IMG/VR virus record: IMGVR_UViG_3300045970_000109
Location: 1-52,201 of that record
Source: a virus
Direction: 5' to 3' (one strand)
DNA length: 52,201 bases
In this document: positions 4,313 to 47,892 of the stretch, in pieces
Position numbering within the stretch: position 1 is the stretch's first letter
How the letters are laid out: each line of letters starts with the position of its first letter
The notes under the pieces: model-generated
Database searches by the model: none
Told to the model about the DNA's origin: nothing
What the model saw: the letters and a program-made list of their open reading frames with translations, nothing else
Translations under genes and position numbers: made by a program

Positions 4313-5617
4313 TTATCCGATTGAAGTCTGAATGGCGTTAGCGTTGTTAGAAACTGCAGTAGACAGCTTCTGGAAGGTCTTAACGCGAGTCAAGCCAGCA
4401 TCAACATCGGGATCGCCGTAGAGAGCAACACCGAAGCTTTCAGGCAGCACGTTAATACGATCAGTGATCGACTTAACAATCATCTGAGCCAGCTCAGGAG
4501 AGCAAGACTGAGTAACGAACTGGATGATGCGATGCAGACCAGCGATCAGGTGCCAAGCAGTAGTGCGCTTGTCATCCTTGGTCTTAGGCATGATGCACTT
4601 CACACCATCATGCTTAGCCTGATCAATCTGAGCGGCTGCGTAGCTGATGCAAGCGAATGCAGTCAGATACTCAACGGCTACTTCACCCTTGATCTTGATG
4701 TCCTTGGCAAGAAGCTTACCAGAGAAAGCCGCTTCGATATCAGGGAGGCGGTTCATGTAAGCGTAAGTAGTAGCGAACTGGCTGGCAGAGGTAACACCAA
4801 CACAGCCTTCAACGATGGGCTGAAGTAGAGAATACTCCACGCCACCGTTCTTTGCCATTGTATTCAGGAACTCGGAAGCCAAGCGCCATGAACGAGGGCA
4901 AGGATAAGGCTCGTTAGCAGAGGGCTCAGGAACCTGATATCCATGAGCGTTGTTCTTTAGAACGTCCCACTTAGCCTGAAGATACTGACCAGAGGTCTTC
5001 TTCATGAAGGTAACGATTGCAGGATGGATGTCACCAGAACTAATAGCGTAGTTCATGAAGTCATCCAGCGTGTAATCTAGAATCACGTTGATGCAACGTG
5101 AAATAGTGGGATGGTTGAGGTCGTTAGCAAGCGAGTTAGTAGAAGGAGGATTACAAGCAGCTACGATATAGACACCGCTATAATCGTCTCCACCAATCTT
5201 CTTAGCAGAAAGAAGATTCTGAAGAGCAGCCATCATGGATGGGCTAGAGTTATTTAGCTCGTCCAGGAAGAGGTTCTTACGACCACGACCGAAGATGTTA
5301 GTAGGAGTGAAGCGAGTTTCAGCACTGCTACCGATACCACCCTCAAGAGGAACATCCTCAATGTGAGGCAGACCGTTACTATCAAGAGCACCCAACTGCG
5401 AGCAAATCGCAGTAACTAGACCCTTCTCATGATTACCGAAGACCTTCTCAATGATAGCGGTCTTAGCGATGCCAGGCGTTCCCCAAATGATGATTGGAGG
5501 ACACACAGCGGGATCCATCTTTAGAACAACCTTCAGGAGGAAATCCTGAAGACGGGAAAGACTCATACGAGTCGCGGTAGCAAAGAAATCCTTGGAAATA
5601 GTCTCAGCCTTAGCCAT
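4313..5617 (-). CDS. MoxR-type AAA+ ATPase
   Basis: 434 residues. Walker A is IIWGTPGIAKTAIIEKV near residue 45. Walker B-like LFLDELNNSSPSMMAALQ comes near residue 120, and a sensor-1-like VAACNPPS follows. This is the MoxR/RavA layout, in which the ATPase works with a VWA protein, here 2015-3337. MoxR-VWA pairs act as chaperones in activating or assembling protein complexes. A perfect hairpin (GCCTCA, loop TCGT, TGAGGC) at 5639-5654 precedes the gene. Confidence 0.9.
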   Translation of the reverse strand: MAKAETISKDFFATATRMSLSRLQDFLLKVVLKMDPAVCPPIIIWGTPGIAKTAIIEKVFGNHEKGLVTAICSQLGALDSNGLPHIEDVPLEGGIGSSAETRFTPTNIFGRGRKNLFLDELNNSSPSMMAALQNLLSAKKIGGDDYSGVYIVAACNPPSTNSLANDLNHPTISRCINVILDYTLDDFMNYAISSGDIHPAIVTFMKKTSGQYLQAKWDVLKNNAHGYQVPEPSANEPYPCPRSWRLASEFLNTMAKNGGVEYSLLQPIVEGCVGVTSASQFATTYAYMNRLPDIEAAFSGKLLAKDIKIKGEVAVEYLTAFACISYAAAQIDQAKHDGVKCIMPKTKDDKRTTAWHLIAGLHRIIQFVTQSCSPELAQMIVKSITDRINVLPESFGVALYGDPDVDAGLTRVKTFQKLSTAVSNNANAIQTSIG

Positions 5618-18250: not shown

Positions 18251-19211
18251 CATACGACATCTGAGTAGACTTATACCAGTTGTCTAGATAGTCCATGTCA
18301 ATGTTCTCCTGAAGAGTGCTATTTGGCATTGAGTTATCCATAAGAAGGTTATAACCCACTTCCAACAGCGTTTGGGCCATCTCAAACGTACAAGCCTCAT
18401 TGAATCTAATGTCTCGTAAGGCACTTCTTACTGGTTCAGGTCTTGGGAAAACTAATTCTCCTGTAGTTAACAGTTCGTTTGCTTCGTCAATAATACGAAG
18501 AGCGTTATACATAGCTTTGCGATCAAAAGCACCACCTTCGGCAGCTTTCTTAGCTCGCTCTCCATAACGACTAATCATCGTTTCTATACGACTCTTCCAC
18601 TCATTGAATGGAACTAAACACTCAAACTGTTTATCAAGAATCTTGTAATAAGTAACAGGCTGACCGCCACTGTTAATCTTTTCGCCCCTCGTTATCAGAG
18701 TTGGATACTGCTCACATATCTTAGGAAGACCTACTGATGCATATTTACCATCAGTATAATCTTCACCAGTAGTGTCAGTAGTGACTGAATGGTATTTAGC
18801 CCAATAAATCATATCATCTTTGATAGCTCGGAGCATATTAAGAGAATTACCCTTTTCAGAATAAACCCTTGCCTGGGTCTTTGCATAATCTGCAAAGGGA
18901 GTGATGTTCTTACTCACCAGACAGTGTTTATTCGCACGGAGTTCTTCCCATACTGGGGAAGTCTCTATGATAAACTCCTTTGGCGTAAATAACATCTCTA
19001 TAGCGTTGGTTTGCTGTTGACCTAACAACAAGGCAAACCTTTTCAAACTCATGTGTTCAGTATCAGGGTCATAGGTGCGGAAACAATCATCAGCACCCGT
19101 AATCAGCTCTGACAGAGAGTGTGCGAAGACAACTTTATAGTCCCGGTCCGATTTTTCATAGTTGGTTCCATATAAGTGTGAGCCATGCAATGTTTGTACT
19201 ACAACCTTCAC
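18225..19211 (-). CDS. COG3541-like nucleotidyltransferase
   Basis: 328 residues starting MKVVVQTLHGSHLYGT followed by NYEKSDRDYK: the GS...G...SDxD pattern of pol-beta-fold predicted nucleotidyltransferases often found in phages. The helical C-terminal half contains KAMYNALRIIDEANELL. The substrate is unknown. The gene starts where the GIY-YIG gene ends (four shared bases). Confidence 0.82.
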   Translation of the reverse strand: MKVVVQTLHGSHLYGTNYEKSDRDYKVVFAHSLSELITGADDCFRTYDPDTEHMSLKRFALLLGQQQTNAIEMLFTPKEFIIETSPVWEELRANKHCLVSKNITPFADYAKTQARVYSEKGNSLNMLRAIKDDMIYWAKYHSVTTDTTGEDYTDGKYASVGLPKICEQYPTLITRGEKINSGGQPVTYYKILDKQFECLVPFNEWKSRIETMISRYGERAKKAAEGGAFDRKAMYNALRIIDEANELLTTGELVFPRPEPVRSALRDIRFNEACTFEMAQTLLEVGYNLLMDNSMPNSTLQENIDMDYLDNWYKSTQMSYVKKELALR

Positions 19212-19855
19212 GATTTCTCCTTTTTAGAATCAAAGTATGCTTTACGTGAAGCCCTCATCTTAGCTTTAGATTCTTCAGAAACTACTTTGGAGGTTGGTTT
19301 ACCTACCAAAGCTCTACTAATCTTTCTTCTAGTTTCTTTAGACTGAATCTTTCCTGTCATTGGTGAAGGCTTACCTTTATTGGCCCGACTTATTTTCTCT
19401 CTTGTCTCTTCGGAATTGAGTTTACCTCTCCTATGCGTGTTACCCAGCAACCTTGCGCTGGTTTGTTCCTTAACTTCTTTTGTACTTGGTATACCTTTTC
19501 TATATGTATTACCCATAAGAGAGTTGCTTATCTTTTCCTTCGCTTCTTTAGAATGAACAGAACCTAAAGTAGACCCAGCTGTTGGAGATATGTTATATTT
19601 TGGTTTGTAGTTGTCTATTGCTCGTTGTTCATACAGTAACAAATTAACTTTGCTACAATACAAAAGAATAACAAACGTAAAAGCATTTTCGCCATATTTA
19701 TACCAAGCATTTTGAAGTATAGGGGAATGGTGAGTTCCCTTATTTAATCTTCGTTTGTGTTCTTTCCAACGCTTGTTTAAGTTAACAGCACTACCAACAT
19801 ACAAGTCATTGGTAGTTGTATTTATTATTTTATATATTCCAGTAATTCTAATCAT
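19208..19855 (-). CDS. GIY-YIG homing endonuclease with NUMOD3 repeats
   Basis: 215 residues. The GIY-YIG catalytic module is TGIYKIINTTTNDLYVGSA at the N-terminus, followed by RWKEHKRRLNKG. Four repeats of the type SKEAKEKISNSLMGN / SEETREKISRANKGK are NUMOD3 DNA-binding motifs. Unlike most endonucleases here it is on the minus strand. It is probably selfish and inserted between 19211 and the small gene at 19904. Confidence 0.93.
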   Translation of the reverse strand: MIRITGIYKIINTTTNDLYVGSAVNLNKRWKEHKRRLNKGTHHSPILQNAWYKYGENAFTFVILLYCSKVNLLLYEQRAIDNYKPKYNISPTAGSTLGSVHSKEAKEKISNSLMGNTYRKGIPSTKEVKEQTSARLLGNTHRRGKLNSEETREKISRANKGKPSPMTGKIQSKETRRKISRALVGKPTSKVVSEESKAKMRASRKAYFDSKKEKS

Positions 19856-24714: not shown

Positions 24715-25894
24715 AGTTTTCAAACCTCATGAGGTCATCATACTTATCAAGAGCTTGGTGATAGGTAAGCTCAGCAATGCCTTCAAAAGGATTGATATCA
24801 CCTAGAACCAAGGTTTTTGCGCCAGCGTGTGGCAGAACATCCAAGATTCTTCGCTTAACAGAGAAGGCCTTCTTGACTGCGTTGAATCTAGTCTCACTAA
24901 AAGCCTCGTCAGGGCTTAGCTCGAAAAAGTTTCGGTAAACATTTTTCAGTTTTCCTATGTTGTCCTCGGTAGTAGAGGCGAAAAACATTGGGAGACAGCG
25001 TTCACCGATATAAACAGCTTCCCCGGCGCTGTAATAGGACAATCCACGCTTCTCGCGGATCTCATCGTACAGAGGAGCTTCAAGACCGCCGTTAATACAG
25101 CCAATCAAGAAACTCATTACCTGAATGTCCTTGACATCAGCTGGCATCTTACCAAGAAGACCTACTAGAGTCTTGCTGTCCTTTGGTACAACTTCCTGAA
25201 GAAGATCGTACTCACCGAACTTGATGTGATCAGGGTTCTTAGTAGCATACATCATGCCATCACTAGTTCCACTAACCATAGCACCTTCTACAAGGTTGCC
25301 ATGCATTGCGGTATTAGGGAAAGCAAAATCAGGCTTAATGAACTCTTCACCAACCTGACAGATGATAGAAGGTAGTGTGAATTCAGCAGCTCTTACCAAG
25401 GATTGTTCGTAAGTGAAAGACTCAATATCACTCTTGATGCCAATAGCGCCAGTATAATTATAATGCTTACGCATAAGGTTGTAGTAAAAACCCGACTCTT
25501 GACTGTTGAACATGTCTCCGTATTCCTGGAGGACGGTGCTCTTCTCAGACTCAAACGCTTCCTTCGTCCACGGTTCCAATCCAGGCTTCGTAATCTTCTC
25601 ATATAGCCTTTCAACAACAGTCTTAAGCTCTTCAGTAAGACCAGAGAAATAGAAAACTACCTGATTGTCAGAGGTGAAAGCGTTGTGGTCGATGCTAAGA
25701 GAAGTAAGTTCTTCGCGCATATCATCGAATGGTTTACACATTAGGTGTTCCATTAGATGACTAGTACCACGAATACCAGGAGTCTCAAAGAAACCACCAG
25801 TCTGTCTATAAGCTAGGCCGAATAGGCCCATCTCAATCTTATTCGGGATGAACACATTCTTCTTGAATGGTACTAGCTTCATTGGTTTCGTCAT
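24695..25894 (-). CDS. M16-family (insulinase-like) metallopeptidase
   Basis: 399 residues. The inverted zinc motif HxxEH is HLMEHLMC near residue 47, and the third ligand region is FESEKSTVLQEYGDM near residue 115. A C-terminal half-domain contains EKRGLSYYSAGEAVY. Both M16 halves seem present, although the protein is a little short. It degrades peptides or processes an unknown protein, and with Hsp20 and the proteasome-like enzyme forms a proteostasis theme. Confidence 0.9.
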   Translation of the reverse strand: MTKPMKLVPFKKNVFIPNKIEMGLFGLAYRQTGGFFETPGIRGTSHLMEHLMCKPFDDMREELTSLSIDHNAFTSDNQVVFYFSGLTEELKTVVERLYEKITKPGLEPWTKEAFESEKSTVLQEYGDMFNSQESGFYYNLMRKHYNYTGAIGIKSDIESFTYEQSLVRAAEFTLPSIICQVGEEFIKPDFAFPNTAMHGNLVEGAMVSGTSDGMMYATKNPDHIKFGEYDLLQEVVPKDSKTLVGLLGKMPADVKDIQVMSFLIGCINGGLEAPLYDEIREKRGLSYYSAGEAVYIGERCLPMFFASTTEDNIGKLKNVYRNFFELSPDEAFSETRFNAVKKAFSVKRRILDVLPHAGAKTLVLGDINPFEGIAELTYHQALDKYDDLMRFENYVEVQF

Positions 25895-26178: not shown

Positions 26179-26343
26179 CTACCTCCTAGTAGGGTTAGGA
26201 AATGTTCCGAATGGAACTGTTGGTTCCCACATATCACGAAGAAAGTCTTTATGGCACCAACCATAAAAGATAGGGTTGTTATTCCATTCTAACCAAAGCT
26301 CTCTTCTACTAAACTTTAGGTTATCGTAAAACCCAGGTGCCAT
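26179..26343 (-). CDS. Hypothetical protein, 54 aa
   Basis: MAPGFYDNLKFSRRELWLE, with AGGAG ahead. Aromatic-rich (NNPIFYGWCHKDFLRDMW). Its TAG stop is one base before the ATG of 25839-26177, and its last codons contain that gene's ribosome binding site. Confidence 0.68.
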   Translation of the reverse strand: MAPGFYDNLKFSRRELWLEWNNNPIFYGWCHKDFLRDMWEPTVPFGTFPNPTRR

Positions 26344-26351
26344 ACTATCTC

Positions 26352-26585
26352 CTAAGGTATGATCTTGGTAACGATTAGAAGGCGTCCAGGATAGTTAACA
26401 GGTTGTTTACTACCACCTACATATATTCTACCACAGTCAATTTTAGTTACTTCGACGATTTCGATACTGGAGGCTCTACCACTAGTACAAGCCCTAACAA
26501 CATTATCACCAATTTCGAATTCGTTACCTAACAGATCTACAGGATCTGTTGCATTCCACTTAGTTTGTACTACTCTCTGAACCAT
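26352..26585 (-). CDS. SH3-like conserved phage protein, 77 aa
   Basis: DLLGNEFEIGDNVVRACTS followed by VEVTKIDCGRIYVG and YPGRLLIV is an all-beta pattern common in phage proteins of unknown function. AGGAGC precedes the start. It is divergent from the endonuclease at 26659. Confidence 0.75.
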   Translation of the reverse strand: MVQRVVQTKWNATDPVDLLGNEFEIGDNVVRACTSGRASSIEIVEVTKIDCGRIYVGGSKQPVNYPGRLLIVTKIIP

Positions 26586-26648
26586 AATGCTCCTTGTTGG
26601 GTTGTTAATAGCAATTAAAAATGCCCTCGAAAGGGCGAAGGGTAATAG

Positions 26649-26658
26649 AATTAAATAT
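26649..26658 (+). promoter_or_regulatory. AATTAANTAT element abutting endonuclease start
   Basis: AATTAAATAT lies directly before the ATG at 26659. If it is a -10-type element the transcript would start inside the ORF, so either the true start is later or it plays another role. Confidence 0.35.
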
Positions 26659-27360
26659 ATGATTTATGATAATGAAACCCTTCGCCAACTTATAACCAAG
26701 TATAAGAGTAGAGAGCAAGTTCCTCTTATTTGCAGCTCCTGTGAAAGAACGTTTACAAAACAGAAGAATGAGATTCAGTGGGTATTAAAAAGAAAACCGA
26801 CAAGTGTTATAACTTGTTCTCCTGCTTGTGGATCACGGCTAAATAGAGTTGACAGAATTACTAAGTTCTGTGTAAACTGTAGTATTTCTATAGTAAGAAA
26901 AGCTTCTGAAGAGGTTGGTAATTCTTTTTGTTCTTCTAAATGCTCTGCTACTTATAGTAACACACACAAAACAACCGGAACTAGGCGCTCTAAATTAGAG
27001 ACTTGGTTAGAACAACAACTAATCTCACTATACCCTAACTTAGCCTTCCAGTTCAACATGAAGGATACCATTCAATCTGAGTTGGACATCTATATCCCAA
27101 CTCTTAAGTTAGCTTTTGAGCTAAATGGTATCTTTCATTATGAACCTATATATGGTGTTGAGAAACTTGCTTCTATATTAAACAATGATACACGAAAGTT
27201 TCAAGCTTGCTTAGAACATGGTATTGAACTATGTATTATTGATAGCAGCAAGCAAAAGTATTTTACTGAAAAAAGTAGCCAGCAGTTTTTGACTATCATA
27301 GAGACTATAATCAGTCAAAAACTACTGGCGATGCAGAGAGTATCCGATTCGAACGGATGA
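26659..27360 (+). CDS. Vsr-like homing endonuclease with zinc fingers, overlapping tRNA-Ser
   Basis: 233 residues. Two CxxC...CxxxC fingers (CSSC/CSPAC and CVNC/CSSKC) precede a nuclease core SELDIYIPTLKLAFELNG followed by IFHYEPIYG, the same core as the protein at 17819. The last 27 bases run antisense into the 3' half of tRNA-Ser, so the gene inserted at, or evolved to end within, the tRNA. Plus strand, AT-rich. Confidence 0.85.
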   Translation: MIYDNETLRQLITKYKSREQVPLICSSCERTFTKQKNEIQWVLKRKPTSVITCSPACGSRLNRVDRITKFCVNCSISIVRKASEEVGNSFCSSKCSATYSNTHKTTGTRRSKLETWLEQQLISLYPNLAFQFNMKDTIQSELDIYIPTLKLAFELNGIFHYEPIYGVEKLASILNNDTRKFQACLEHGIELCIIDSSKQKYFTEKSSQQFLTIIETIISQKLLAMQRVSDSNG

Positions 27361-27650: not shown

Positions 27651-28241
27651 TTATAACATTTTGATATTACGGTGATTGTTCATACTGAAATAATCATGCA
27701 TCACAGCAACTGCTGTAATACTGTTATTCATATCAGGCTCTCGCCAGTCAGTATGGTAATTCCAGTTATGAGAACCTTTGTAGTAGAACCTTCTAGTAAT
27801 TTCATCGAAGGACCTAGCATACTTATCAGGCTCTGTTTGTAAAAGAACTAAGGTTCCATTTGTCCAAGGTGCAAAGGGGTGTTCCTTTAAGAACTGTGCA
27901 GCTGCGTGTGCTGATTGGACAGCTTTCTGTGACTCTGATAGTTCGTGGTCACAAATGATATACAGCTTCTTCGCTCCTGGATTGTCAAAGTAGGTCTTCC
28001 ATGAATCAATGCGCTCCCTAAGTTGAGCATTCTTATCAGTCGATATTCTGCACTGAAGTTTGTTTGGATTCTTGGAAGGTGTTTCAATAGGACCCTTGTG
28101 CGTTCTATGCATACCTCTTAGCTCACTCATTGCAATGTGCAATGCTCTGTAACGAAGTGTATCATGTCCTGCAAGGGTCTTTAAAAGAAGCTTAGCTTTG
28201 TTCCAAGCTTCCTTTTGTTCGGGTGTAAAAGTAGTCGCCAT
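27651..28241 (-). CDS. Peptidyl-tRNA hydrolase 2-like protein
   Basis: 196 residues from MATTFTPEQKEAW at 28241, chosen for the GGAG six bases ahead. The C-terminal half KKLYIICDHELSESQKAVQS followed by AHAAAQFLKEHPF matches the strand and Q-x-x-HA signature of Pth2. Pth2 frees tRNA from peptidyl-tRNA. The match is by eye only, and a general Pth2-fold protein of other function is possible. Confidence 0.6.
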   Translation of the reverse strand: MATTFTPEQKEAWNKAKLLLKTLAGHDTLRYRALHIAMSELRGMHRTHKGPIETPSKNPNKLQCRISTDKNAQLRERIDSWKTYFDNPGAKKLYIICDHELSESQKAVQSAHAAAQFLKEHPFAPWTNGTLVLLQTEPDKYARSFDEITRRFYYKGSHNWNYHTDWREPDMNNSITAVAVMHDYFSMNNHRNIKML

Positions 28242-28354
28242 GTTATTCTCCATGAAATAGGCAGTTATTAATCAAGTCAATAACGGCTATTATCATGGTG
28301 GTCTAGTTGATACCTAGAGCTTCTTCATAGGATACTCTCCTTATACATAATTGT

Positions 28355-28365: not shown

Positions 28366-28441
28366 TGGTGGCTCTGGCGGTAGTCGAAACCGCGATAAAA
28401 GGTTTAGAGTCTCCTGCTTTGGGCCGCTAAGCTACAGAGCC
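28366..28441 (-). tRNA. Amber-suppressor-type tRNA (CTA anticodon)
   Basis: Acceptor GGCTCTG/CAGAGCC, D stem GCTT/AAGC, T arm GCGGT-TTCGACT-ACCGC and encoded CCA are regular. The anticodon loop reads CTCTAAA with U33 and A37, giving CTA, which reads UAG. The anticodon stem GGAGA/CCTTT is weak (two G-U pairs and an A-C mismatch), so the tRNA may be degenerate or have special decoding. Confidence 0.7.
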
Positions 28442-28632
28442 AATATTCAAGACACAGTTTTGCTTTTTCCAATAAAAAGTTTTTTGAGTTGCTGGATGTG
28501 TCTTACATTTTTTCAAGACGCCTCTTTTTTCTATTAACAGTAGAATGAGGTTGGTTGCTGATGGCATCTTCTTGATATATTCTAGATCCATTCTCTACAT
28601 GGGCGAGGAATATGCTGTGAGGATCTGGTCGT

Positions 28633-31992: not shown

Positions 31993-32277
31993 CTATTGGG
32001 TATCAACCTCTACTTTGTATTCATGCATCTCACATTCACCATGCTCTGTCCAACCAGAATAAGCTCGTTTACCACCTTGAGCTATCTCGCCCATACAAAT
32101 CCACCCTTTAGGCTCATTGCAATGGCATTTCTGCCTAGGGTCTTTTGCTGGTAACTTTACTGTTGTACAGTGGTGAAAGTCCTGAATGTGGTGTTTGCAG
32201 TTACAGCAGCAGTTATGAGGTCTGGTATTAAGATCTTCGATACAACGATGTGCCTCTACAATCTCACACGGTTTCAT
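31993..32277 (-). CDS. Cys/His-rich zinc-binding protein, 94 aa
   Basis: CCCNCKHH at residues 23-30 and later CHC, CMG and HGECEMHEY give many potential ligands. The spacing is not that of a named finger. It overlaps the RNA ligase gene's end by 14 bases, so the two are coupled. Confidence 0.72.
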   Translation of the reverse strand: MKPCEIVEAHRCIEDLNTRPHNCCCNCKHHIQDFHHCTTVKLPAKDPRQKCHCNEPKGWICMGEIAQGGKRAYSGWTEHGECEMHEYKVEVDTQ

Positions 32278-33631
32278 GATCGGTATCTACCTCTTCTTCA
32301 TCTGCCAAGCTCTGTTCAGATTCCAAGTCAACTAGACCCTTATCCAGATCCTTGGTTTCCTTATCCAAGAAGGCAAAGTTCTTCAGTTTATAAGCAGGGC
32401 ACTCAAAAAGGCCGTCTACTCTTACGACGATACCTTCTTCCCAAACATCACCACTATTCAGCGGACATTTTCTATCACGCATGTAATCGGCTTCCAACTT
32501 AGCCAAGAAGTTTTGATTCCAATGCTGCTCAAGAGGAATGTCAGGGCAGTAATCCTTAGCTTTACCATAGTAGAACTCCGTTACATGTTTGATTCCGTAT
32601 TTATTGCAATATTCCTTGATCTGCGGCCAGGAGAACTCAATCACCTGTCCCGCAGCATTAGTAGAGGTAATGCGATAAACGTAAACCTCATGTTCGTTAG
32701 GGCGTGTGCCATAGTGGTAGCCTTTTTGGATCCAAGCTCCTGTTGGAAGCTGACCTACAGCTTCGCCGTATAGAGTGATACCATCCTGAATGCTACTCTT
32801 AAGGTAATCTGCGATCACGCCCCACAAGTCAAAGTTGTAAAAGCCGCTATTAACAGTTGTGTTAATATACTTGTTCTTAACAACAGTACGACTTGAATAG
32901 ATGACATCGTATTTGGTATTATTAAAAGCTGTTGGAACGAACTTGGTAAAGATGGACTTCCACCAGGGGAGTGGCTCCTTAGTAAGAACCTTACCAACAA
33001 CCCAAGAAGTACCATGAATCTTGTTAGTAATGCTGATCATGTCCTCTGGATTGAGCTTGTGTGCATTGCGGCGAAGGTTTTCGGTGTCAATGTGCAGTCT
33101 GAACTGATTCTCCACCAGACGATCAAACTTATTGACCTTCTTCTTATCCTTCTGCTTCTGTGTGCCAGACTCTTTTACGCGAATGACATACTTGCAGCAG
33201 ATTTCATGCCCGAGGATCTTATCGAAGTCAACACCCTTAACGATGTAGGGTTCAAGTTCCTTAGCGCGGGTGATATCAATCATGATGTAATTGAGACAGG
33301 CAATAGGCATGAACAAGCCTTCCGACTTATGACCACGGAACTTCATGGTCTTAATGCGCCTGTTTTCTTCAAAGTAACCCTTCTTGGTTACATCCCTATT
33401 GAGTTCAGCCTTACGATAAAGGTTGTTCTCGCCAACAAAATCATGACTAAGCTGTGTCTCAGCAGGGAAGAACAAACCAAGATCACCAACCTTGGTATCT
33501 TTCCCAACAATTACGCTGTTACCAAAGATAATAGCAGCGACAACATTGTCACAATTTTCCAGCTCAACTAGCTTTTCAATCTCAACCAGTGTGGCGCAGT
33601 AGTTAGGATTGATTGGTTTTTCAAGGCTCAT
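32264..33631 (-). CDS. RNA ligase, DraRnl/Rnl5-type (TIGR02306-like)
   Basis: 455 residues. Nucleotidyltransferase motifs are in order: motif I NKIHGTSWVVGK (Lys accepts AMP), motif III TLYGEAVGQLP, motif IV WEEGIVVRVDG, motif V YKLKNF. The N-terminal domain LVEIEKLVELENCDNV with IVGKDTKVGDLGLFF fits the Rnl5 OB domain. The enzyme seals RNA 3'-OH/5'-phosphate nicks with ATP. Neighbouring Gly/Thr tRNAs, and a kinase and phosphatases further on, suggest RNA repair. Confidence 0.92.
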   Translation of the reverse strand: MSLEKPINPNYCATLVEIEKLVELENCDNVVAAIIFGNSVIVGKDTKVGDLGLFFPAETQLSHDFVGENNLYRKAELNRDVTKKGYFEENRRIKTMKFRGHKSEGLFMPIACLNYIMIDITRAKELEPYIVKGVDFDKILGHEICCKYVIRVKESGTQKQKDKKKVNKFDRLVENQFRLHIDTENLRRNAHKLNPEDMISITNKIHGTSWVVGKVLTKEPLPWWKSIFTKFVPTAFNNTKYDVIYSSRTVVKNKYINTTVNSGFYNFDLWGVIADYLKSSIQDGITLYGEAVGQLPTGAWIQKGYHYGTRPNEHEVYVYRITSTNAAGQVIEFSWPQIKEYCNKYGIKHVTEFYYGKAKDYCPDIPLEQHWNQNFLAKLEADYMRDRKCPLNSGDVWEEGIVVRVDGLFECPAYKLKNFAFLDKETKDLDKGLVDLESEQSLADEEEVDTDHETV

Positions 33632-34038: not shown

Positions 34039-34791
34039 CTAAAGTCTAATCTCTAGTATCTTTACATCCTGTGGGTTATTGGTTTTTAGTTCGCTTGGAT
34101 AACCGATAGGGTTGCGAACAATCCTAGTGTTACCAAACATAATGTCCTGTCTGTCATGGCTATGTCCGTGGAACCAGATCTTAGGTTTCAGATCTAGGAT
34201 TATGTCTCCTACATTAGCCACATAAAGACAATTGTAACTGTCTGCCTGAAACTGCTCACTAACACATTCCCACACTGGAAGCATGTGGCTAACAACAATA
34301 TCACCTTCATTTATATTCTCACAAAGGTGTTTTCGTTCTTCTACATTGAAGTCTTCCCACCACTTCATAAAGCCTCTGATGTAAGCAGTATCGCTCCAGT
34401 TCATCAGCTTCTTTCTAACTAGTGGGTTATCTGGATACCAGCAAGTAGTTCCAACAAACCGCATACCCTCATACTCAAAGGCTTTGTAATAGTTAGGTCC
34501 AAGAACTCTAAGGCCTTCTTTGTTAAGAGCATCAAGCATGTCTAATCCGTTGGTCTTTGGGCTAGTCCCATACCACTCATGATTACCTGGGACATACACA
34601 ATCTCTATAGCCCACTTCCTGAACTCATCTAGGTAAATCAGGCAAATATCATTGTGTAATGACCAAATATCCCCAGCTAATACCAAGACATCAGCTATCT
34701 CAACTGGTCTGATATACTCAAGGAACTTGATTGCAGCATTTACATCCCTGTAATGTTCCAGGTGGATATCGCTTAACTCGTAGAGTAGCAT
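34039..34791 (-). CDS. Calcineurin-like metallophosphoesterase
   Basis: 250 residues from MLLYELSDIHLEHY at 34791 (AAGGA ahead). D-x-H (SDIHLE), GD (LAGDIW), GNHE (VPGNHEWYG), H (VVSHMLP) and GHSH (FHGHSHD) complete the metallophosphoesterase signature. Many such enzymes remove phosphates from nucleotides or RNA ends. It is near the RNA ligase. Confidence 0.93.
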   Translation of the reverse strand: MLLYELSDIHLEHYRDVNAAIKFLEYIRPVEIADVLVLAGDIWSLHNDICLIYLDEFRKWAIEIVYVPGNHEWYGTSPKTNGLDMLDALNKEGLRVLGPNYYKAFEYEGMRFVGTTCWYPDNPLVRKKLMNWSDTAYIRGFMKWWEDFNVEERKHLCENINEGDIVVSHMLPVWECVSEQFQADSYNCLYVANVGDIILDLKPKIWFHGHSHDRQDIMFGNTRIVRNPIGYPSELKTNNPQDVKILEIRL

Positions 34792-34819
34792 AGAGTTATC
34801 CTTTATTTTAGATTTACAC

Positions 34820-34829
34820 AATTAATTAT
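34820..34829 (+). promoter_or_regulatory. AATTAANTAT element before LAGLIDADG gene
   Basis: AATTAATTAT about 30 bases upstream of the ATG at 34851. Confidence 0.45.
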
Positions 34830-34850
34830 TAGATACACAAGGTGAACATT

Positions 34851-35486
34851 ATGGGTAGACCAAGTCGGGGAACATTAAAACCATTATTAGAAGAAACACC
34901 AGAAGCTTATTATTGGATGGGTTTCTTATTAGCAGATGGGCATTTTTCAGAGAAGCGTTTAGCAGTATGCTTAGCTAAACACGATGAAGAACACCTTATT
35001 AAATTAAGTCAGTTTTTAGCTAATTCTAATGGTTTATTCCCAGCTGTCAATACATATGACAAAGGCACTAATAGTAGACTCGGTGTTTGGGATATAGATA
35101 ATATGAAACTACTCAAACAACGCTGGGGTATTGTTAATAATAAAACCATATCTCCACCAGACATTAGTTGGGTTAGTTCAGACAATCTTATTCCTGTTTT
35201 AATTGGATTTATTGATGGTGATGGCTGTATTCAGAAGCAATCAAAGAGAACTAACTCCAAGATCTCAATTAAAAATCATATTTCTTGGGTGTCTTTTCTC
35301 CAACAACTATCTGATAATATCCACCAACGATTTGATGCAGTCTCACCAAAAGCCCACATAAACAACTCTGGGTATGTTATTCTTAATATATGTAGATACT
35401 CTATTGTTAATCAGCTTAAGCTCTATTCTAACTCTCTCCCAGTAATGTCTCGAAAATGGGATATAATAGATGAGTTTAGCTCCTAA
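34851..35486 (+). CDS. LAGLIDADG homing endonuclease
   Basis: 211 residues from MGRPSRGTLKPLL at 34851 (AAGGTG ahead; an in-frame GTG at 34842 is less likely). Two dodecapeptide motifs, YYWMGFLLADGHF and LIGFIDGDGCIQ, mark a two-repeat enzyme that cuts long asymmetric sites. It is on the plus strand and ends four bases into the next minus-strand gene. Confidence 0.93.
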   Translation: MGRPSRGTLKPLLEETPEAYYWMGFLLADGHFSEKRLAVCLAKHDEEHLIKLSQFLANSNGLFPAVNTYDKGTNSRLGVWDIDNMKLLKQRWGIVNNKTISPPDISWVSSDNLIPVLIGFIDGDGCIQKQSKRTNSKISIKNHISWVSFLQQLSDNIHQRFDAVSPKAHINNSGYVILNICRYSIVNQLKLYSNSLPVMSRKWDIIDEFSS

Positions 35487-36684: not shown

Positions 36685-38166
36685 TTACAGTGAAAAGGGC
36701 GCTACAGCTTCCTTCACAGGAGCGTAGCGTGGGTTGTCAAGGACTTCCATCAGCATCTCAATTGGAGATACTGAGGTGGCGTTAACCGCCTTCTGGAAGA
36801 TAGAAGGAGAGCATCCTGAAACAAGATACACACCCTTCTCGTCCTTGGTAACTGGAGCTTGCTGGCCTCGGCTAGCAACATTCCAGAACACCACCTTAGG
36901 CAGCTCGTAACCAGCATCTGCAAACTTACGCTTAGCGGATTCAAAGTTAGTCAAGCTGCTGTCTCGCATACAACGATCAAACTCCATGTCGGAGATGATG
37001 AAGATGCTGTCAGGCAGTTCGGACTGAGGAACCTTATTGGAAACTGCAGCGTTCAACACAAGGTCAAACACAGCTTCCATGTTAGTGTTCATGTCCCAAT
37101 TAGCCTGAGAAAGATTATTGATACGCTCACGAAGAGTAGTATCAACAAGGTTCTGAAGCTGAGGACGCTCAGAGAAGGTAATGAACTGATCCTTGAAGCA
37201 ACCCTTATTGCGCTCGGCAATGTAGATAGCAAGAGAGATACAGACCTCCATAGGAGTTCCGCTCATGCTACCAGACACGTCAGCAACAACAAGAGCATTC
37301 TTGTCGGTATCAGCATAGTTAGGCAACTGCTTCCACAGAGCCTCAAGAGTCAGGTCGACTCCACTGGAAGCTCCCCAACCACCATGAATACCATACTTGT
37401 GCAGGATGTCATAGGGATAGAGAACTGCAGAGTTGATCTTCACTTCACCCTTAACAGCGGCTTCAATAAACTGCTGATACCGTGTGGCATCATGCTTAGC
37501 GAAAGCCTGCTTGTAGATGAGAGAAGCCCTGGAAGGAACAGAAGAGTAGTTCACCTTAACCCACTCGTTAGCAGACATCTTACGCTCAACGATGTCAATG
37601 TGCTTACGAAGAGCAGACAACTTCTGCCTGTATTCCTTTTCAGTCAGGCCGAGAATCTTAGCCCACTTACGACCAAGAGCCTGAGTCTCCTTAGAGGAAG
37701 TGTTGATAGAAGGCATCCACTTGGCAAGCAAGGAGATAGACTCGCTATCCTTCATGTGGTCGGAGTCAATGTTCAGCTGAGCCTTGATAAGCTCTCTGAC
37801 AATAGGACTATCGGTATATTCGAGAATGTCATCCCAACGACCATACTCAGATACCATGTTAACCACGGTATCGAAGATCAAAGGGCGTTCATTCTTCAGG
37901 ATAGTTAGGCAATTACGGAAACTATCCCGTTCTCCCTGCCCACCGCGAGGATCACGCAAGTAGAAAAGAACTCGCGTGGCCAGTCCTGCGTCAGAGGACA
38001 ATGCCTTATGGAAAAGGTTATCAATCTCAGTCTTCTGACCGCGCTTGGCAGGAGCGTGATAGAAGAAGTCCAGGATGTTATCCATCGTGGAGCTGTGAGT
38101 TACAGCATCATTCTCTGTACGAGTCATGTTGCTGGTCTGTGCGAGAGCCTGTTGGAAGAGATTCAT
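36685..38166 (-). CDS. Ro60-like RNA-binding protein (TROVE/DUF2828 plus VWA)
   Basis: 493 residues from MNLFQQALAQTS at 38166 (AAAGGA ahead). The N-terminal half is helical-repeat-like with FYLRDPRGGQGERDSFRN and GRWDDILEY, as in TROVE/DUF2828 proteins. The C-terminal VWA domain has MIDAS motifs ALVVADVSGSMSG, the Thr in DMNTNMEA and FIISDMEFD. Ro60 proteins bind misfolded and Y RNAs in their ring. A tRNA-mimic RNA on the same strand (38294-38405) lies just upstream. A palindrome (ACGGTT/AACCGT) at 38187-38199 overlaps the leader and may regulate. Confidence 0.82.
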   Translation of the reverse strand: MNLFQQALAQTSNMTRTENDAVTHSSTMDNILDFFYHAPAKRGQKTEIDNLFHKALSSDAGLATRVLFYLRDPRGGQGERDSFRNCLTILKNERPLIFDTVVNMVSEYGRWDDILEYTDSPIVRELIKAQLNIDSDHMKDSESISLLAKWMPSINTSSKETQALGRKWAKILGLTEKEYRQKLSALRKHIDIVERKMSANEWVKVNYSSVPSRASLIYKQAFAKHDATRYQQFIEAAVKGEVKINSAVLYPYDILHKYGIHGGWGASSGVDLTLEALWKQLPNYADTDKNALVVADVSGSMSGTPMEVCISLAIYIAERNKGCFKDQFITFSERPQLQNLVDTTLRERINNLSQANWDMNTNMEAVFDLVLNAAVSNKVPQSELPDSIFIISDMEFDRCMRDSSLTNFESAKRKFADAGYELPKVVFWNVASRGQQAPVTKDEKGVYLVSGCSPSIFQKAVNATSVSPIEMLMEVLDNPRYAPVKEAVAPFSL

Positions 38167-38186
38167 GGTATTTCCTTTCAAGATAC

Positions 38187-38199
38187 GGTTTAACCGTGT
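38187..38199 (-). promoter_or_regulatory. Palindrome in the leader of the Ro60-like gene
   Basis: ACGGTT and AACCGT around a single base, 20 bases ahead of the start codon. It is a possible operator or small RNA stem. Confidence 0.35.
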
Positions 38200-38293
38200 G
38201 ATGGTGGGATTGCTGTTAGTATCTTAGTAATGAAATCTAGAGGCCTTCGGGCTTTAACCGTTGAGTTGCTGCATGCCTCTATAAATGAATGAC

Positions 38294-38405
38294 AAGGGAT
38301 GTTATTTAGTCGGACGCTCTACCAGCTGAGCTACAGTGGGTATGAACCACCAGTGAGATTCGAACTCACGACACTCTGATTATTTTTAGTTGCTGTTAAT
38401 CCCTT
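38294..38405 (-). ncRNA. YrlA-like Y RNA candidate (circularly permuted tRNA mimic)
   Basis: In transcript order: closing strand AAGGGAT (38405-38399), anticodon-like strand TCAGA, T arm GTGAG-TTCGAAT-CTCAC (38369-38353), an acceptor-like hairpin TGGTGG / CCCACTG capped by a short loop, TA, D arm GCTC..GG..GAGC (38331-38316), anticodon-like strand TCCGA, and ATCCCTT (38300-38294) pairing with the first strand. So tRNA landmarks occur 3' half first, with no free CCA end, as reported for bacterial YrlA RNAs. The neighbouring gene downstream is Ro60-like. A decayed tRNA is the alternative. Confidence 0.65.
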
Positions 38406-38741
38406 TGAATAGCTGTAATGTTTGTAACCAAGAGAACTTTACCGAGTAAAAGGAGGTTGGTTTGTAGTTGCTGCTGTTCTCTTTCTGTTACATTGGGTTT
38501 GTATCAAGACACAAATTGGTTGGGCCAATCACTCCTGGTAACAAGGATGCCCGAAGGCTAGCTTTGTTGGTTGGTTGCGGTGTATGTCTTTGGTAATGCC
38601 TAGGCGCAGCTTGGTAAGTTCAAGCAGACTAGCGATTCGGGGCTCGCCACACCTTGCATAGCTCTTTCGAGCAAGACAGTTTTGTTGCAGTACACGCCTT
38701 TGGACTAGTCATATCGGATCGACAGGGTTAAAACCGAAATG
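38406..38741. other. Non-coding leader between CGATAYA site and Y-like RNA
   Basis: About 330 bases without an ORF. It contains repeats of GCAGCAACT and a GCCCGAAGGC that could pair with its complement near 38240. It could be part of a longer precursor of the Y-like RNA. I see no tRNA in it. Confidence 0.4.
38710..38716 (-). promoter_or_regulatory. CGATAYA motif ahead of Y-RNA region
   Basis: The minus strand reads GATCCGATATGACTAG. It would start a transcript near 38700 that runs through the Y-like RNA into the Ro60-like gene. Confidence 0.35.
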
Positions 38742-39331: not shown

Positions 39332-39802
39332 ATGACTAAACAATGTATTAAGTGTAAAGAAGTTAAAGAGATTACAGCCTTTGGTAAATGTTCTGCAAAC
39401 AAAAGCGGCATCAGCAATTGGTGTAAACCATGTAGAGTCGAGTCAACCAAACAATCTAGATTGTCTCATCCAAGAAAGGTTTACAAGGATAGAAAAGCTG
39501 AAAGTAAACGCTATCGTCAGAAGTATCCAGACAAAGTAAAAGCTAGTCTTCTTAAATCTAGATACGGCATTACTGTAGAAAACTATAACCAAATGTTAGT
39601 TAGTCAAGATGGTGTGTGTTCTATATGCAAAGGTATAAATAGTAATGGAAAGCCTTTATTTATAGACCATAATCATGAAACTGGCAAAGTTAGAGAGTTG
39701 TTATGCACTACTTGCAACTCTGCTATTGGTTTGCTAAAAGAAAATCCCTTTCTAGCATTAGAAGTAGCTAGGTATTTAGAGAGGCATTCACTTATTGTCT
39801 AG
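39332..39802 (+). CDS. HNH endonuclease VII-type homing endonuclease
   Basis: 156 residues. CIKC...CKPC zinc ribbon, a basic linker, then CSICKGINSNGKPLFIDHNH followed by ETGKVRELLCTTCN. It is of the same family as 21318-21731. Plus strand; the last 15 bases overlap the minus-strand gene 39788-40576. Confidence 0.92.
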   Translation: MTKQCIKCKEVKEITAFGKCSANKSGISNWCKPCRVESTKQSRLSHPRKVYKDRKAESKRYRQKYPDKVKASLLKSRYGITVENYNQMLVSQDGVCSICKGINSNGKPLFIDHNHETGKVRELLCTTCNSAIGLLKENPFLALEVARYLERHSLIV

Positions 39803-40576
39803 TTTATGCTTTCTAAAACTCCAAGAGTTAAATCCATGAGCGGCAATCTTATCCTTATCGGCCATCTCAGGAATAACTTCTGTATTTCCTAAAACTCCTC
39901 CTATCCATTGTTCGAGTTCCTGATAGGCTGTGAACGGATCAAGCACCTTCTGGAAGTTAAGTTCCTTGAGATTAGGATCAACAACAAACCAATCACCACG
40001 CTCTCTGGTATGAAAGAACCCACAGGCGATAGCAATAGATAGTTTGTTCTCAATGGCCCAATCAGATAAGACTTCGTCACCTTTAACAGTTAGAAGCCTA
40101 AGGATCTCATCCATTTCAGTGCTTTTATTCTTACCATAGTAGGCTTTGTTATCACCAGTATAACCAATCTCAGCAGCCTTAGCTAGCCAAGAATCAGCAT
40201 CCCAGTAATAACTAAAGTCACCAAAGGTTGGACCAGTTCTCATATCCTTGAGAGCAATACCACCATACAACTTACCAGCAAATAGAACATAGAGATACTC
40301 TATGTCATAAGTCTGTGTGCTGTATCTACCACGGCCTTCGTGGTAAGCTTTCTCGCTAATCCTAGGATACAAGACATTACTCTCTAGTCTCCAGGAACGT
40401 TTCTCATCCCATTCAGGGAGAGGGAAATTGCCTTTGAACTCTGTTGTATTACGAGTGAAGACCCTAGTAAGATCAACACCTTGACCAGCTACCACGTCAT
40501 AATAATCTTTAAAACGACTAATTATTCGGATAACCACCTCCAGGTAATTTATATCCTTTATGTTGAGTTCTTCCAC
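39788..40576 (-). CDS. Hypothetical protein, 262 aa, start uncertain
   Basis: Not recognised. The body (DLTRVFTRNTTEFKGNFPLP, then YWDADSWLAKAAEIG) looks like a globular alpha/beta protein. The ATG at 40576 lies inside the GIY-YIG gene, which overlaps by 59 bases. A GTG a few codons later is an alternative. The endonuclease may have replaced the original start. Confidence 0.72.
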   Translation of the reverse strand: MEELNIKDINYLEVVIRIISRFKDYYDVVAGQGVDLTRVFTRNTTEFKGNFPLPEWDEKRSWRLESNVLYPRISEKAYHEGRGRYSTQTYDIEYLYVLFAGKLYGGIALKDMRTGPTFGDFSYYWDADSWLAKAAEIGYTGDNKAYYGKNKSTEMDEILRLLTVKGDEVLSDWAIENKLSIAIACGFFHTRERGDWFVVDPNLKELNFQKVLDPFTAYQELEQWIGGVLGNTEVIPEMADKDKIAAHGFNSWSFRKHKLDNK

Positions 40577-41249
40577 TTTTTTTAGTTAATACTTCGTGCA
40601 GTGTTCCCATACTTAATCCATTGTCTAAACAAAACTGTTTAAGTTCTTTTGTTATTACAATACTGCCATCTGGACATTGTATTGTCCATTCCATAGCCAT
40701 CACTTCTTTGCGTCTTTGTTTACATAATACTCTTGTTTTTTCTAACTGCTCTCTTGCTTTGGCAGCATGTTCTGGCGATAAAATCTTACCTTTATTAGAA
40801 GCAGAAATTTTCTGTTTAGTTTCTTCTGACAGAGGCCCATGACTTACACCAGCCTGTCGTTTAGAACACTTATCTTTATATTTCTGTCCATACTTCCTAC
40901 CCTTGTTAGCAGCAGATATTTTATGCTTTGTTTCTTCTGACCGCTTAATACCAAGGTGAGATCGTTTGGCTGGTAAAATATTATAAAGTGGTATATCTAA
41001 CCTTTTATAATAATCCATCCAGTTTTGCTCTTCTTTAGTAAGTTCATTGGTTAGTGTTTCAGACAGTTGGACAAAATAAAAACTTGCTTGTGTATGTTTA
41101 TCCCAACTTCTTTGCAAGTGTGAACAGTGGTGTCTGTTATTATTGAGTTCGTATTGATGTCTAATCCATCGCTTATCTACATCATACGCTTGCCCCACAT
41201 AAACCCAACCAGTGATTTTATTAAATATAGCATAAATCCCGCAACTCAT
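40518..41249 (-). CDS. GIY-YIG homing endonuclease with NUMOD repeats
   Basis: 243 residues. GIYAIFNKITGWVYVGQAYD is the catalytic start; KRSEETKHKISAANKGRK and LSEETKQKISASNKGK are NUMOD3 repeats. A C-terminal ITKELKQFCLDNGLSMGTLH resembles the NUMOD1/HTH element. Minus strand; it overlaps the 5' end of 39788-40576. Confidence 0.93.
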   Translation of the reverse strand: MSCGIYAIFNKITGWVYVGQAYDVDKRWIRHQYELNNNRHHCSHLQRSWDKHTQASFYFVQLSETLTNELTKEEQNWMDYYKRLDIPLYNILPAKRSHLGIKRSEETKHKISAANKGRKYGQKYKDKCSKRQAGVSHGPLSEETKQKISASNKGKILSPEHAAKAREQLEKTRVLCKQRRKEVMAMEWTIQCPDGSIVITKELKQFCLDNGLSMGTLHEVLTKKSGRTQHKGYKLPGGGYPNN

Positions 41250-41294: not shown

Positions 41295-41519
41295 TCATGG
41301 AACCTCTATAATCTCAAAATGTTCTCTAAGGACGGGAATACTTATATTATTTTGTTCTGTCCATCCTCGAAAAGAAAATCTAAAATCAATTTGATTATCT
41401 TTTACTCTATCTAAAAAATTAATAAGGTCTTCTTTTTTATAATACTTAAGACCTTCTGGCTTAAGAACATATTCTCCAGTTGGAAGATATAAAAGTTCAT
41501 GATTTATAACTTTTCCCAT
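41295..41519 (-). CDS. LYLPTGE-family small protein, 74 aa
   Basis: HELLYLPTGEYVLKPEGL near the N-terminus and NNISIPVLREHFEIIEVP at the end: a minimal member of the family. It overlaps the kinase gene by 16 bases. Confidence 0.78.
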   Translation of the reverse strand: MGKVINHELLYLPTGEYVLKPEGLKYYKKEDLINFLDRVKDNQIDFRFSFRGWTEQNNISIPVLREHFEIIEVP

Positions 41520-41881
41520 CGGTCCCTCATCTTCTTGATGTGTTCCTCAGAAACACCATGAATGTTGGGATAGTTACCAGTCATCTCAATGACCTTAATA
41601 GGAATGTTAAGTTCCTTGGCCATATCAAAGTAGGCTTGCATCTCCCACTTCTTCGTGAAGGTATTACTGACAGCAACAGAGTTGCCAGCAAGGAGGTTCT
41701 TCCTAACCTCATCCTGGCACCACTTGTGAGCCTTACCAAGCAGTGAGCCATCCCACTTATACTCTCCGCTCAGGCTGAAATACATATCAGTCTCCAAGTG
41801 AGTGTATTCGGTGAGGGTCTTAGCAAAGGTAGACTTGCCACTACCAGGAAGACCACGAATAAGAAGGATGTTGACAGCCAT
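41504..41881 (-). CDS. PNK-like P-loop kinase
   Basis: 125 residues. LIRGLPGSGKSTFAKTL is Walker A; HLETDMYFSLSGEY provides the acidic residue, and a lid-like RKNLLAGNSVAVSNTFTKK follows. This is the AAA_33/T4 PNK-type kinase fold, which puts phosphate on 5'-OH nucleic-acid ends or small substrates. It is nine bases from a metallophosphoesterase gene, so kinase and phosphatase may form an end-healing pair with the RNA ligase. Confidence 0.8.
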   Translation of the reverse strand: MAVNILLIRGLPGSGKSTFAKTLTEYTHLETDMYFSLSGEYKWDGSLLGKAHKWCQDEVRKNLLAGNSVAVSNTFTKKWEMQAYFDMAKELNIPIKVIEMTGNYPNIHGVSEEHIKKMRDRWEKL

Positions 41882-47616: not shown

Positions 47617-47766
47617 GTGAACCTCGAAAAGAAACTAGACCCCAATTTCATTTTTGTATTTCGGAAACAATAAACCGACTCGGGATAGTCAATACTAGCG
47701 GCTACCCGAGAATTCACTGGTCATTGGGAGTTGGTAGCTGTATGGGTCTAAAAGGGTTAAAAGAAC

Positions 47767-47892
47767 TGGTGCGCCTACCCGGACTCGAACCGGGACGGAT
47801 TACTCCGACAGATTTTGAACAGGCTTTTGACAATCCACCGAACACCATCTCAGCGATAAGTCTGTTGTGTCTACCAATTCCACCATAGGCGC
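47767..47892 (-). tRNA. tRNA-Leu with 41-nt insertion in anticodon loop
   Basis: Acceptor GCGCCTA/TAGGCGC, Leu-type D arm GTGGAATTGGTAGACAC, anticodon stem ACAGA/TCTGT, class II variable arm CGGA/TCCG, T arm CCCGG-TTCGAGT-CCGGG and encoded CCA are all intact. Between the stem halves lie 48 bases instead of 7. Removal of 41 bases would leave CTCAAAA (CAA) or, shifted, CTTAAAA (TAA). The insert ends with AAAAGCCTGTT, a near copy of the 3' anticodon strand AAAATCTGT. Confidence 0.82.

What the first reader, a model, noticed from the sequence alone, without database searches (positions are those of the whole stretch)
36685..38405. Ro60-like gene next to a permuted tRNA-mimic RNA: a phage Ro60-Y RNA particle
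Seen: a TROVE/DUF2828-like VWA protein (36685-38166) and, on the same strand just upstream, an RNA whose T arm comes first, then a hairpin made of the two acceptor strands, then the D arm; AAGGGAT/ATCCCTT close the whole and TCAGA/TCCGA pair 4 of 5. Known: bacterial YrlA Y RNAs mimic tRNA, lack a free CCA end, and lie near rsr (Ro60). Inferred: this pair forms a Y-RNA-tethered RNP for RNA quality control or decay during infection.
Basis: partly seen in the sequence, partly recalled or inferred. Interest (0 to 1): 0.9.

Follow-up and report, generated by a model that had tools for sequence, protein, structure and literature searches.

The report
Phage Ro60-like protein with Y-RNA array
This phage carries a relative of the human Ro60 autoantigen next to a cluster of small RNAs that share one conserved stem, one of them a tRNA look-alike, and the same pairing recurs in hundreds of phages and bacteria, so a whole overlooked branch of Ro/Y-RNA particles becomes testable.

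Summary
The protein (36685-38166, - strand) is DUF2828/DUF7788; the TROVE profile does not match it, but its predicted fold does match Ro60: the four best PDB matches are Ro60/TROVE structures. The RNA upstream (38293-38406) has the order T arm, acceptor hairpin, D arm, closed by a 7-bp stem. Rfam YrlA aligns to it end to end, but at 31.8 bits against a cut-off of 69. Relatives beside DUF2828 genes in other phages and bacteria keep the structure with many compensatory changes. The more important feature is the 'foot': closing stem plus ACAGCAA(U/C)U. In the window it recurs in at least three more hairpins upstream of the gene. It is strongly enriched on the sense strand at DUF2828 loci. Searched for as RNA alone, it led to 47 viral records, 39 of which encode DUF2828; a scrambled motif gave none. 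TROVE-linked YrlA RNAs carry a similar tRNA-like head on a different foot. Related loci also hold unpermuted tRNA-like genes whose anticodon arm is replaced by the same foot. Phage Ro/Y-RNA pairs were already proposed, so this is a new variant of a known kind. Binding, expression in this phage and function were not tested.

The parts
36685..38166 (-). Ro60-fold protein gene (DUF2828 helical ring + DUF7788 VWA with MIDAS residues D296/S298/S300/T361/D393), 493 aa
   Evidence: PHROG 850 'RNA-binding protein', E 4e-145; AF2 pLDDT 92, pTM 0.91; top PDB matches 1yvr, 2i91, 9kop
38293..38406 (-). YrlA-like RNA: foot stem, ACAGCAA, permuted tRNA body, foot stem
   Evidence: Rfam YrlA full length 31.8 bits; family model R1 86.2 bits (member of its own training set); covariation in A3
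38399..38405 (-). foot stem 5' arm AAGGGAT
   Evidence: Pairs with 38294-38300
38390..38396 (-). conserved ACAGCAA motif directly inside the foot stem
   Evidence: CAGC invariant in 18 aligned relatives
38353..38369 (-). T arm GTGAG-TTCGAAT-CTCAC
38334..38352 (-). acceptor hairpin (TGGTGG/CCACTG, 6 pairs incl. two G-U), closed by a loop, no free CCA
38316..38331 (-). D arm GCTC-AGCTGGTA-GAGC
38294..38300 (-). foot stem 3' arm ATCCCTT (followed by G)
38430..38483 (-). foot hairpin without tRNA head (AAGAGAAC-AGCAGCAACU...GUUCUCUU)
   Evidence: 8 WC pairs
38238..38281 (-). foot hairpin without tRNA head (TAGAGGC-AUGCAGCAACU...GCCUCUA)
   Evidence: 7 WC pairs
38179..38226 (-). foot hairpin ending 12 nt before the protein's start codon (UAAGAUAC-UAACAGCAAU...GUAUCUUG-AAAGG); possible autoregulatory site
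   Evidence: 7 WC pairs
38506..38590 (-). probable variant foot hairpin (AAGACAUA..ACCGCAACC..UGUGUCUU)
   Evidence: motif deviates
38602..38699 (-). weak candidate foot hairpin (AGGCGUG..ACUGCAAC..UGCGCCU)
   Evidence: only; may be chance
28448..28505 (-). distant foot hairpin (UAAGACACA-UCCAGCAACU...UGUGUCUUG)
   Evidence: Second-best R1 match in the window, 22.7 bits, E 0.004
28515..28570 (-). distant foot hairpin (AAGAUGCC-AUCAGCAACC...GGCGUCUU)
47635..47751 (-). distant probable foot RNA, 117 nt (TTAGACCC-AUACAGCUACC...GGGUCUAG), downstream of a tRNA

Best explanation
This is a phage Ro ribonucleoprotein module of the DUF2828 branch. The protein is a Ro60-fold ring with a VWA domain. It is proposed to bind a set of Y-like RNAs through one shared element, the foot: a 7-9 bp stem (5' AAGNNNN / 3' NNNNCUUG) with ACAGCAA(U/C)U just inside it. 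Each RNA carries its own head on the foot. In the RNA at 38293-38406 the head is a tRNA body (T arm, acceptor, D arm) whose anticodon arm has been replaced by the foot; the acceptor is closed by a loop, so it cannot be charged or decoded. The most likely working is that the ring holds the foot and shows the tRNA body to a protein that recognises tRNA elbows or acceptors (in bacteria YrlA is reported to bind PNPase), which directs that protein at structured or damaged RNA or takes it away from real tRNAs. Shown by computation: fold, RNA architecture, covariation, repeated feet, genome-wide co-occurrence. Inferred: binding (about 0.85), tethering or recruitment as the job (about 0.4), feedback through the foot that ends beside the start codon (about 0.25).
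For: Fold: the four best PDB matches are Ro60/TROVE over the whole protein, E 2e-8 to 8e-8, and all others are at 7e-3 or worse and mostly VWA-only. RNA: Rfam YrlA full-length match; A3 structure with 92% of cells paired against 35-44% when partners are slid. Foot: sense ACAGCAA with a perfect 7-bp closing stem in 154/294 cases at phage loci (11.8 expected from shuffles) and 173/261 at bacterial loci (10.2 expected), antisense 3/35 and 4/37. RNA-only pattern: 47 viral records, 39 encode DUF2828; scrambled motif 0. R1 matches at DUF2828 loci are all on the sense strand, 345 of 345 at E up to 0.1, though some are ordinary tRNAs. The same foot occurs on unpermuted tRNA-like genes in place of the anticodon arm: 55 of 72 against 4.7 expected. 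In Listeria phage CKA15, RNA-seq shows very abundant non-coding RNAs within 2 kb upstream of the homologous gene, the authors suggest Y RNAs, and the protein is found in purified particles (PMC12282133).
Against: No binding, expression or phenotype data exist for this phage. The TROVE profile does not match. Superposition on Ro60 is only moderate (TM about 0.5-0.6, rmsd 7-9 A). The window RNA scores below the YrlA gathering cut-off. In CKA15 the one abundant region with printed coordinates (26,236-26,727) does not coincide with the foot array (25,289-25,553), and coordinates of the other two are not in the main text. No PNPase link was tested, and phage partners are unknown.
Confidence: 0.72

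Rival explanations
1. tRNA decoy or counter-defence: the foot-bound tRNA bodies titrate tRNA-targeting nucleases or tRNA-modifying enzymes during infection; the Ro ring only stabilises the RNAs.
For: The heads keep T, D and acceptor features but cannot decode. Related arrays carry tRNA bodies in three connections to the foot. The genomes are rich in tRNA genes, and RNA ligase genes occur here (32264-33631) and beside the homologue in Serratia phage BF, phage CBB and Listeria phages. A competitive-inhibitor role for YrlA was suggested in PMC7790460.
Against: Most heads in the arrays are not tRNA-like (363 of 409 by a crude classification), so a pure tRNA-decoy role does not explain them. The permuted form lacks an anticodon loop, the usual target of anticodon nucleases.
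Confidence: 0.25
2. Permuted tRNA gene: the RNA is matured by circularisation and cutting into a working tRNA, as in red algae.
For: Order T-acceptor-D is that of a permuted tRNA gene; 4 of 5 anticodon-stem pairs exist here.
Against: The anticodon-stem analogue is only 67% paired across relatives. No anticodon is conserved. The foot is shared with hairpins that contain no tRNA. The acceptor is held in a hairpin.
Confidence: 0.03
3. The feet are cis-acting leader elements: processing sites or translational control sites of the tRNA/Ro transcript, not free RNAs.
For: In 29 loci a foot ends within 30 nt of the start codon, 12 nt in the window.
Against: Most feet lie further away, some downstream of the gene, some kilobases off. 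Heads are diverse and conserved in structure. YrlA, the nearest known RNA, is a free RNA.
Confidence: 0.15
4. DNA-level repeats (recombination or binding sites) rather than RNA.
For: Tandem inverted repeats with conserved ends and variable spacers resemble integron-type arrays.
Against: The motif sits on one side of the stem and on the gene-sense strand only. Compensatory changes extend through T, acceptor and D helices. Heads are tRNA bodies in several topologies.
Confidence: 0.02

Closest known systems
Bacterial YrlA Y RNA (Rfam RF02553) with Rsr/Ro60 (TROVE, PF05731)
   Same: Permuted tRNA-like head, closed by a stem of the RNA ends, encoded next to a Ro60-fold protein; Rfam YrlA aligns full length.
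   Different: Below gathering score. The foot is AAGNNNN-NN-ACAGCAAYU/NNNNCUUG, whereas YrlA RNAs beside a TROVE gene (L219) have GGCGAAUGCU...ACUACAUU / UUGUCGCC. The protein is DUF2828, not TROVE. Here feet come in arrays with many different heads.
Phage 'Ro-like RNA binding protein' / PHROG 850 (mycobacteriophage cluster L and others)
   Same: Same protein family, 676 phage records. Y RNAs in mycobacteriophages were reported by Chen et al. 2014, as cited in PMC12282133; the original could not be read here.
   Different: No match to the foot motif, arrays or unpermuted tRNA heads in Rfam or in the papers that could be searched.
Listeria phage CKA15 CKA15_055 and neighbouring abundant ncRNAs (PMC12282133)
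   Same: DUF2828 homologue, upstream non-coding transcripts proposed as Y RNAs; foot RNAs found here at record 25289-25553.
   Different: The authors gave no structure or motif, and the foot RNAs there show no clear tRNA head.
Ro60-Y RNA-PNPase complex (RYPER) of Deinococcus
   Same: Proposed working principle: ring protein plus Y RNA as tether (PMC8394870).
   Different: No partner nuclease tested or identified for the phage particle.

Membership tests
Ro60 / TROVE protein family | Match to the TROVE profile (PF05731) | tested here: not met
   No TROVE match in the window or in the A1 members, although three members give weak vWA_Ro60 matches (best 0.0014)
Ro60 / TROVE protein family | Ro60 fold: helical-repeat ring plus VWA domain | tested here: met
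   AF2 model pLDDT 92; best PDB matches 1yvr, 2i91, 9kop over about 520-570 alignment columns
Ro60 / TROVE protein family | MIDAS metal site in the VWA domain (DxSxS...T...D) | tested here: met
   D296, S298, S300, T361, D393 invariant in 22 homologues; metal binding itself not tested
Ro60 / TROVE protein family | Binds Y RNA and misfolded RNA | not testable with these tools
   Only co-occurrence of foot RNAs and DUF2828 shown
YrlA (RF02553) | Score above Rfam gathering threshold (69 bits) | tested here: not met
   31.8 bits; YrlA-like RNAs beside TROVE genes fetched here also score 27-66
YrlA (RF02553) | T arm, closed acceptor stem, D arm in that order inside a stem of the RNA's ends | tested here: met
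   Full-length 1-114 match and covariation
YrlA (RF02553) | Ro60-binding stem sequence of YrlA (GCGAAUGC.../...UUGUCGC) | tested here: not met
   Replaced by AAGNNNN-ACAGCAAYU / NNNNCUUG
YrlA (RF02553) | Encoded next to a Ro60-type gene | tested here: met
   127 nt upstream of a Ro60-fold DUF2828 gene, same strand
YrlA (RF02553) | Modified by tRNA enzymes and binds PNPase | not testable with these tools
   No biochemistry available
Permuted tRNA gene | Conserved anticodon stem and anticodon | tested here: not met
   Anticodon-stem analogue 67% paired, no conserved anticodon

The most novel reading that the evidence does not exclude
DUF2828 proteins define a second branch of Ro particles with their own modular RNA family. 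One foot (stem plus ACAGCAA) carries interchangeable heads, among them a tRNA body attached at the anticodon position in two circular permutations: chain ends at the foot, as in this window, or chain ends at the acceptor, as in unpermuted tRNA-like genes now read as intron-containing or undetermined tRNAs. In phages the particle may enter the cell with the virion and act on host or phage tRNA handling.
Probability: 0.4. Interest if true: 0.9.

Novelty: new variant of a known kind. Interest (0 to 1): 0.76.

Why it matters
Bacterial Y RNAs are known from few experimental systems, and DUF2828, found in hundreds of phage and many bacterial genomes, has no assigned function. A short diagnostic motif that predicts its RNA partners makes the function directly testable. 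It also explains odd 'undetermined' or intron-like phage tRNAs, and it offers a natural series of tRNA bodies connected to the same protein-binding stem in different permutations, useful for asking what tRNA mimicry by Y RNAs is for.

Tried and rejected
Folding energy of the window RNA: not informative (z -0.92); single feet likewise. Rfam at gathering threshold: only tRNAs. Megablast of 34-48 kb against phages: no near relative. Single-protein scan of viral contigs: no hit, solved by using an alignment. YrlA hits in whole phage genomes were not used as proof, because tandem tRNAs imitate the T-acceptor-D order (13 of 14 control genomes ring); only cores outside predicted tRNAs and near DUF2828 were used, with antisense controls. 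For the same reason many mid-score R1 hits are ordinary or foot-bearing tRNAs and were not counted as YrlA-like. Profile search of PDB by sequence: nothing significant, TROVE only at E 1. CKA15's most expressed region does not carry feet. Promoter/terminator scan: nothing above chance. Key papers (Chen 2014, Sim and Wolin reviews) were not held.

Full report
Check of the observation. The ORF at 36685-38166 (- strand) and the RNA-like element just upstream of it are present as described. The closing stem AAGGGAT/ATCCCTT, the T arm, the acceptor hairpin and the D arm are in the stated order. Energy folding alone does not distinguish the RNA from shuffles. However, Rfam's YrlA model aligns to all of its positions (31.8 bits, E 5e-5 in a 566-base search, below the gathering score of 69). 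ARAGORN and Rfam tRNA do not call it.

The protein. Pfam gives DUF2828 and DUF7788, not TROVE; PHROG 850 is 'RNA-binding protein'. The family is present in 676 phage records, some already annotated as Ro-like. An AlphaFold2 model from 48 window and viral homologues has pLDDT 92 and pTM 0.91. Its four best matches in the PDB are Ro60/TROVE structures at E 2e-8 to 8e-8; the next matches are at 7e-3 or worse and mostly cover only the VWA domain. The MIDAS residues are invariant.

The RNA in relatives. At DUF2828 loci, T-arm-before-D-arm cores outside predicted tRNAs occur 34 times on the sense strand and 3 times on the antisense strand; 23 against 0 have CAGCA within 70 nt upstream, although the motif was not part of the search. 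Eighteen such RNAs align (A3). RNAalifold, without being given a structure, finds closing stem, T arm, acceptor hairpin and D arm, and 18 of 22 pairs have changes on both sides; 92% of cells pair, against 35-44% when partners are slid. Caveat: T, D and acceptor pairing was required in the search, so their pairing percentages are partly built in; the closing stem and CAGC motif were not search criteria, although the ends of each RNA were placed by eye at the stem. The anticodon-stem analogue is only 67% paired, which speaks against a working permuted tRNA.

The foot. The stem followed by ACAGCAA(U/C)U also occurs without a tRNA head. In the window, 38430-38483, 38238-38281 and 38179-38226 have it, and 38506-38590 in a variant form; further copies lie at 28448-28505, 28515-28570 and probably 47635-47751. 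Across loci, sense-strand ACAGCAA is followed by a perfect 7-bp complement of its upstream flank in 154 of 294 cases at phage loci (11.8 expected from shuffles) and in 173 of 261 at bacterial loci (10.2 expected); antisense 3 of 35 and 4 of 37. A search for the RNA pattern alone gave 48 stretches in 47 viral records, of which 39 encode DUF2828 and most of the other 8 are short fragments; a scrambled motif gave none. No Rfam family other than tRNA covers the array loci. In 29 loci a foot ends within 30 nt of the DUF2828 start codon; in the window the distance is 12 nt.

Comparison with TROVE-linked YrlA. Loci of TROVE genes in Pseudomonadota carry YrlA RNAs whose head is like this one but whose foot, where it is clearest (L219), reads GGCGAAUGCU...ACUACAUU/UUGUCGCC. 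So the same kind of head sits on a different foot in each branch. All eight bacterial or archaeal genomes tested that carry DUF2828 lack TROVE.

Other heads in related loci. (b) Unpermuted tRNA-like genes with acceptor, D and T arms in which the anticodon arm is replaced by the foot hairpin, followed by ACAGCAA: of 72 motif-bearing inserts, 55 have a hairpin of at least 6 bp abutting the motif, 4.7 expected. All 92 tRNA predictions with inserts are on the sense strand, and thirteen of the motif-bearing ones have CCA at the end. Thirty of them fold to a cloverleaf with the foot as third arm (A4; members were chosen for having the hairpin, so these counts are descriptive). One of them is annotated 'tRNA-Undet' in Synechococcus phage B23 (L004). 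Such a molecule is a circular permutation of the window RNA: the same body and foot, with the chain ends moved from foot to acceptor. (c) RNAs of the other kind, in which the foot extends or replaces the acceptor stem of a tRNA-like head (L177, L187, L194 and others; L010 and L102 match the tRNA model only at 6-65). A crude count of 409 feet outside the coding sequence gives 25 with the permuted order, 11 with D before T and 10 with a complete tRNA nested; it leaves out class (b).

Outside evidence. A multi-omics study of Listeria phage CKA15 found its DUF2828 protein in purified particles (20 peptides, 57% coverage), reported three very abundant non-coding regions within 2 kb upstream, and proposed Y RNAs (PMC12282133). 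Three feet lie between genes 056 and 055 there (record 25289-25553); the region whose coordinates are printed (26,236-26,727) is a different one. The homologue in Pectobacterium phage CBB is annotated as a structural protein. Reviews describe YrlA as a tRNA mimic that can be modified by tRNA enzymes and that binds PNPase with Rsr (PMC8394870).

Mechanism. From anatomy and the Ro60 precedent, the ring most likely holds the foot and displays the head. For this RNA the head is a tRNA body that cannot decode or be charged, so recruitment of a protein that recognises the tRNA elbow or acceptor, or competition for it, is the best-supported job. Whether that serves RNA decay, tRNA repair or counter-defence is undecided.

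Verdict. Phage Ro/Y RNAs as such were already proposed; the foot motif, the arrays, the genome-wide coupling to DUF2828 and the alternative tRNA connections were not found in Rfam or in the papers that could be read.

Noticed in passing
window 47767-47892 (-): A tRNA-Leu-like gene with a 41-nt insert in the anticodon loop, missed by default ARAGORN (Rfam tRNA 45 bits). The insert has no CAGCAA foot, so it may be a true small intron or another insertion.
   Followed up: partly
L057, L060, L061, L062, L074, L090, L100, L101, L105, L121, L201, L211 and others (coordinates): Unpermuted tRNA-like genes whose anticodon arm is a foot hairpin followed by ACAGCAA; would be annotated as intron-containing or undetermined tRNAs.
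   Followed up: partly
L177 2034-2130, L187 1403-1499, L194 2162-2258, L195 953-1046, L155 2360-2455: tRNA-like heads with anticodon arm present but the acceptor stem replaced or extended by the foot, mostly in Clostridia-type genomes.
   Followed up: no
window 28366-28441 (-): tRNA with CUA anticodon (called tRNA-Pyl by ARAGORN), a possible amber suppressor, directly downstream of two foot hairpins.
   Followed up: no
window 32264-33631, 41504-41881, 34039-34821 (-): RNA ligase, small P-loop kinase and calcineurin-like phosphoesterase genes in the same genome fragment: possible RNA repair set.
   Followed up: partly
window 27651-28253 (-): ORF whose C-terminal half resembles peptidyl-tRNA hydrolase 2 by eye; PHROG match only 'hydrolase' (E 7e-7).
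   Followed up: partly
window 34842-35486 (+), 39332-39802 (+), 40518-41249 (-), 19208-19855 (-): Probable homing endonucleases (LAGLIDADG, HNH and GIY-YIG types by eye) scattered among the genes.
   Followed up: no
L270 2489-2980 (CKA15 record 26236-26727): The most abundant transcript region of Listeria phage CKA15; a structured-looking non-coding stretch without feet, identity unknown.
   Followed up: no
window 2015-3337 and 4313-5617 (-): A second VWA protein and a MoxR-like AAA ATPase gene near each other (by eye), unrelated to the Ro-like gene.
   Followed up: no
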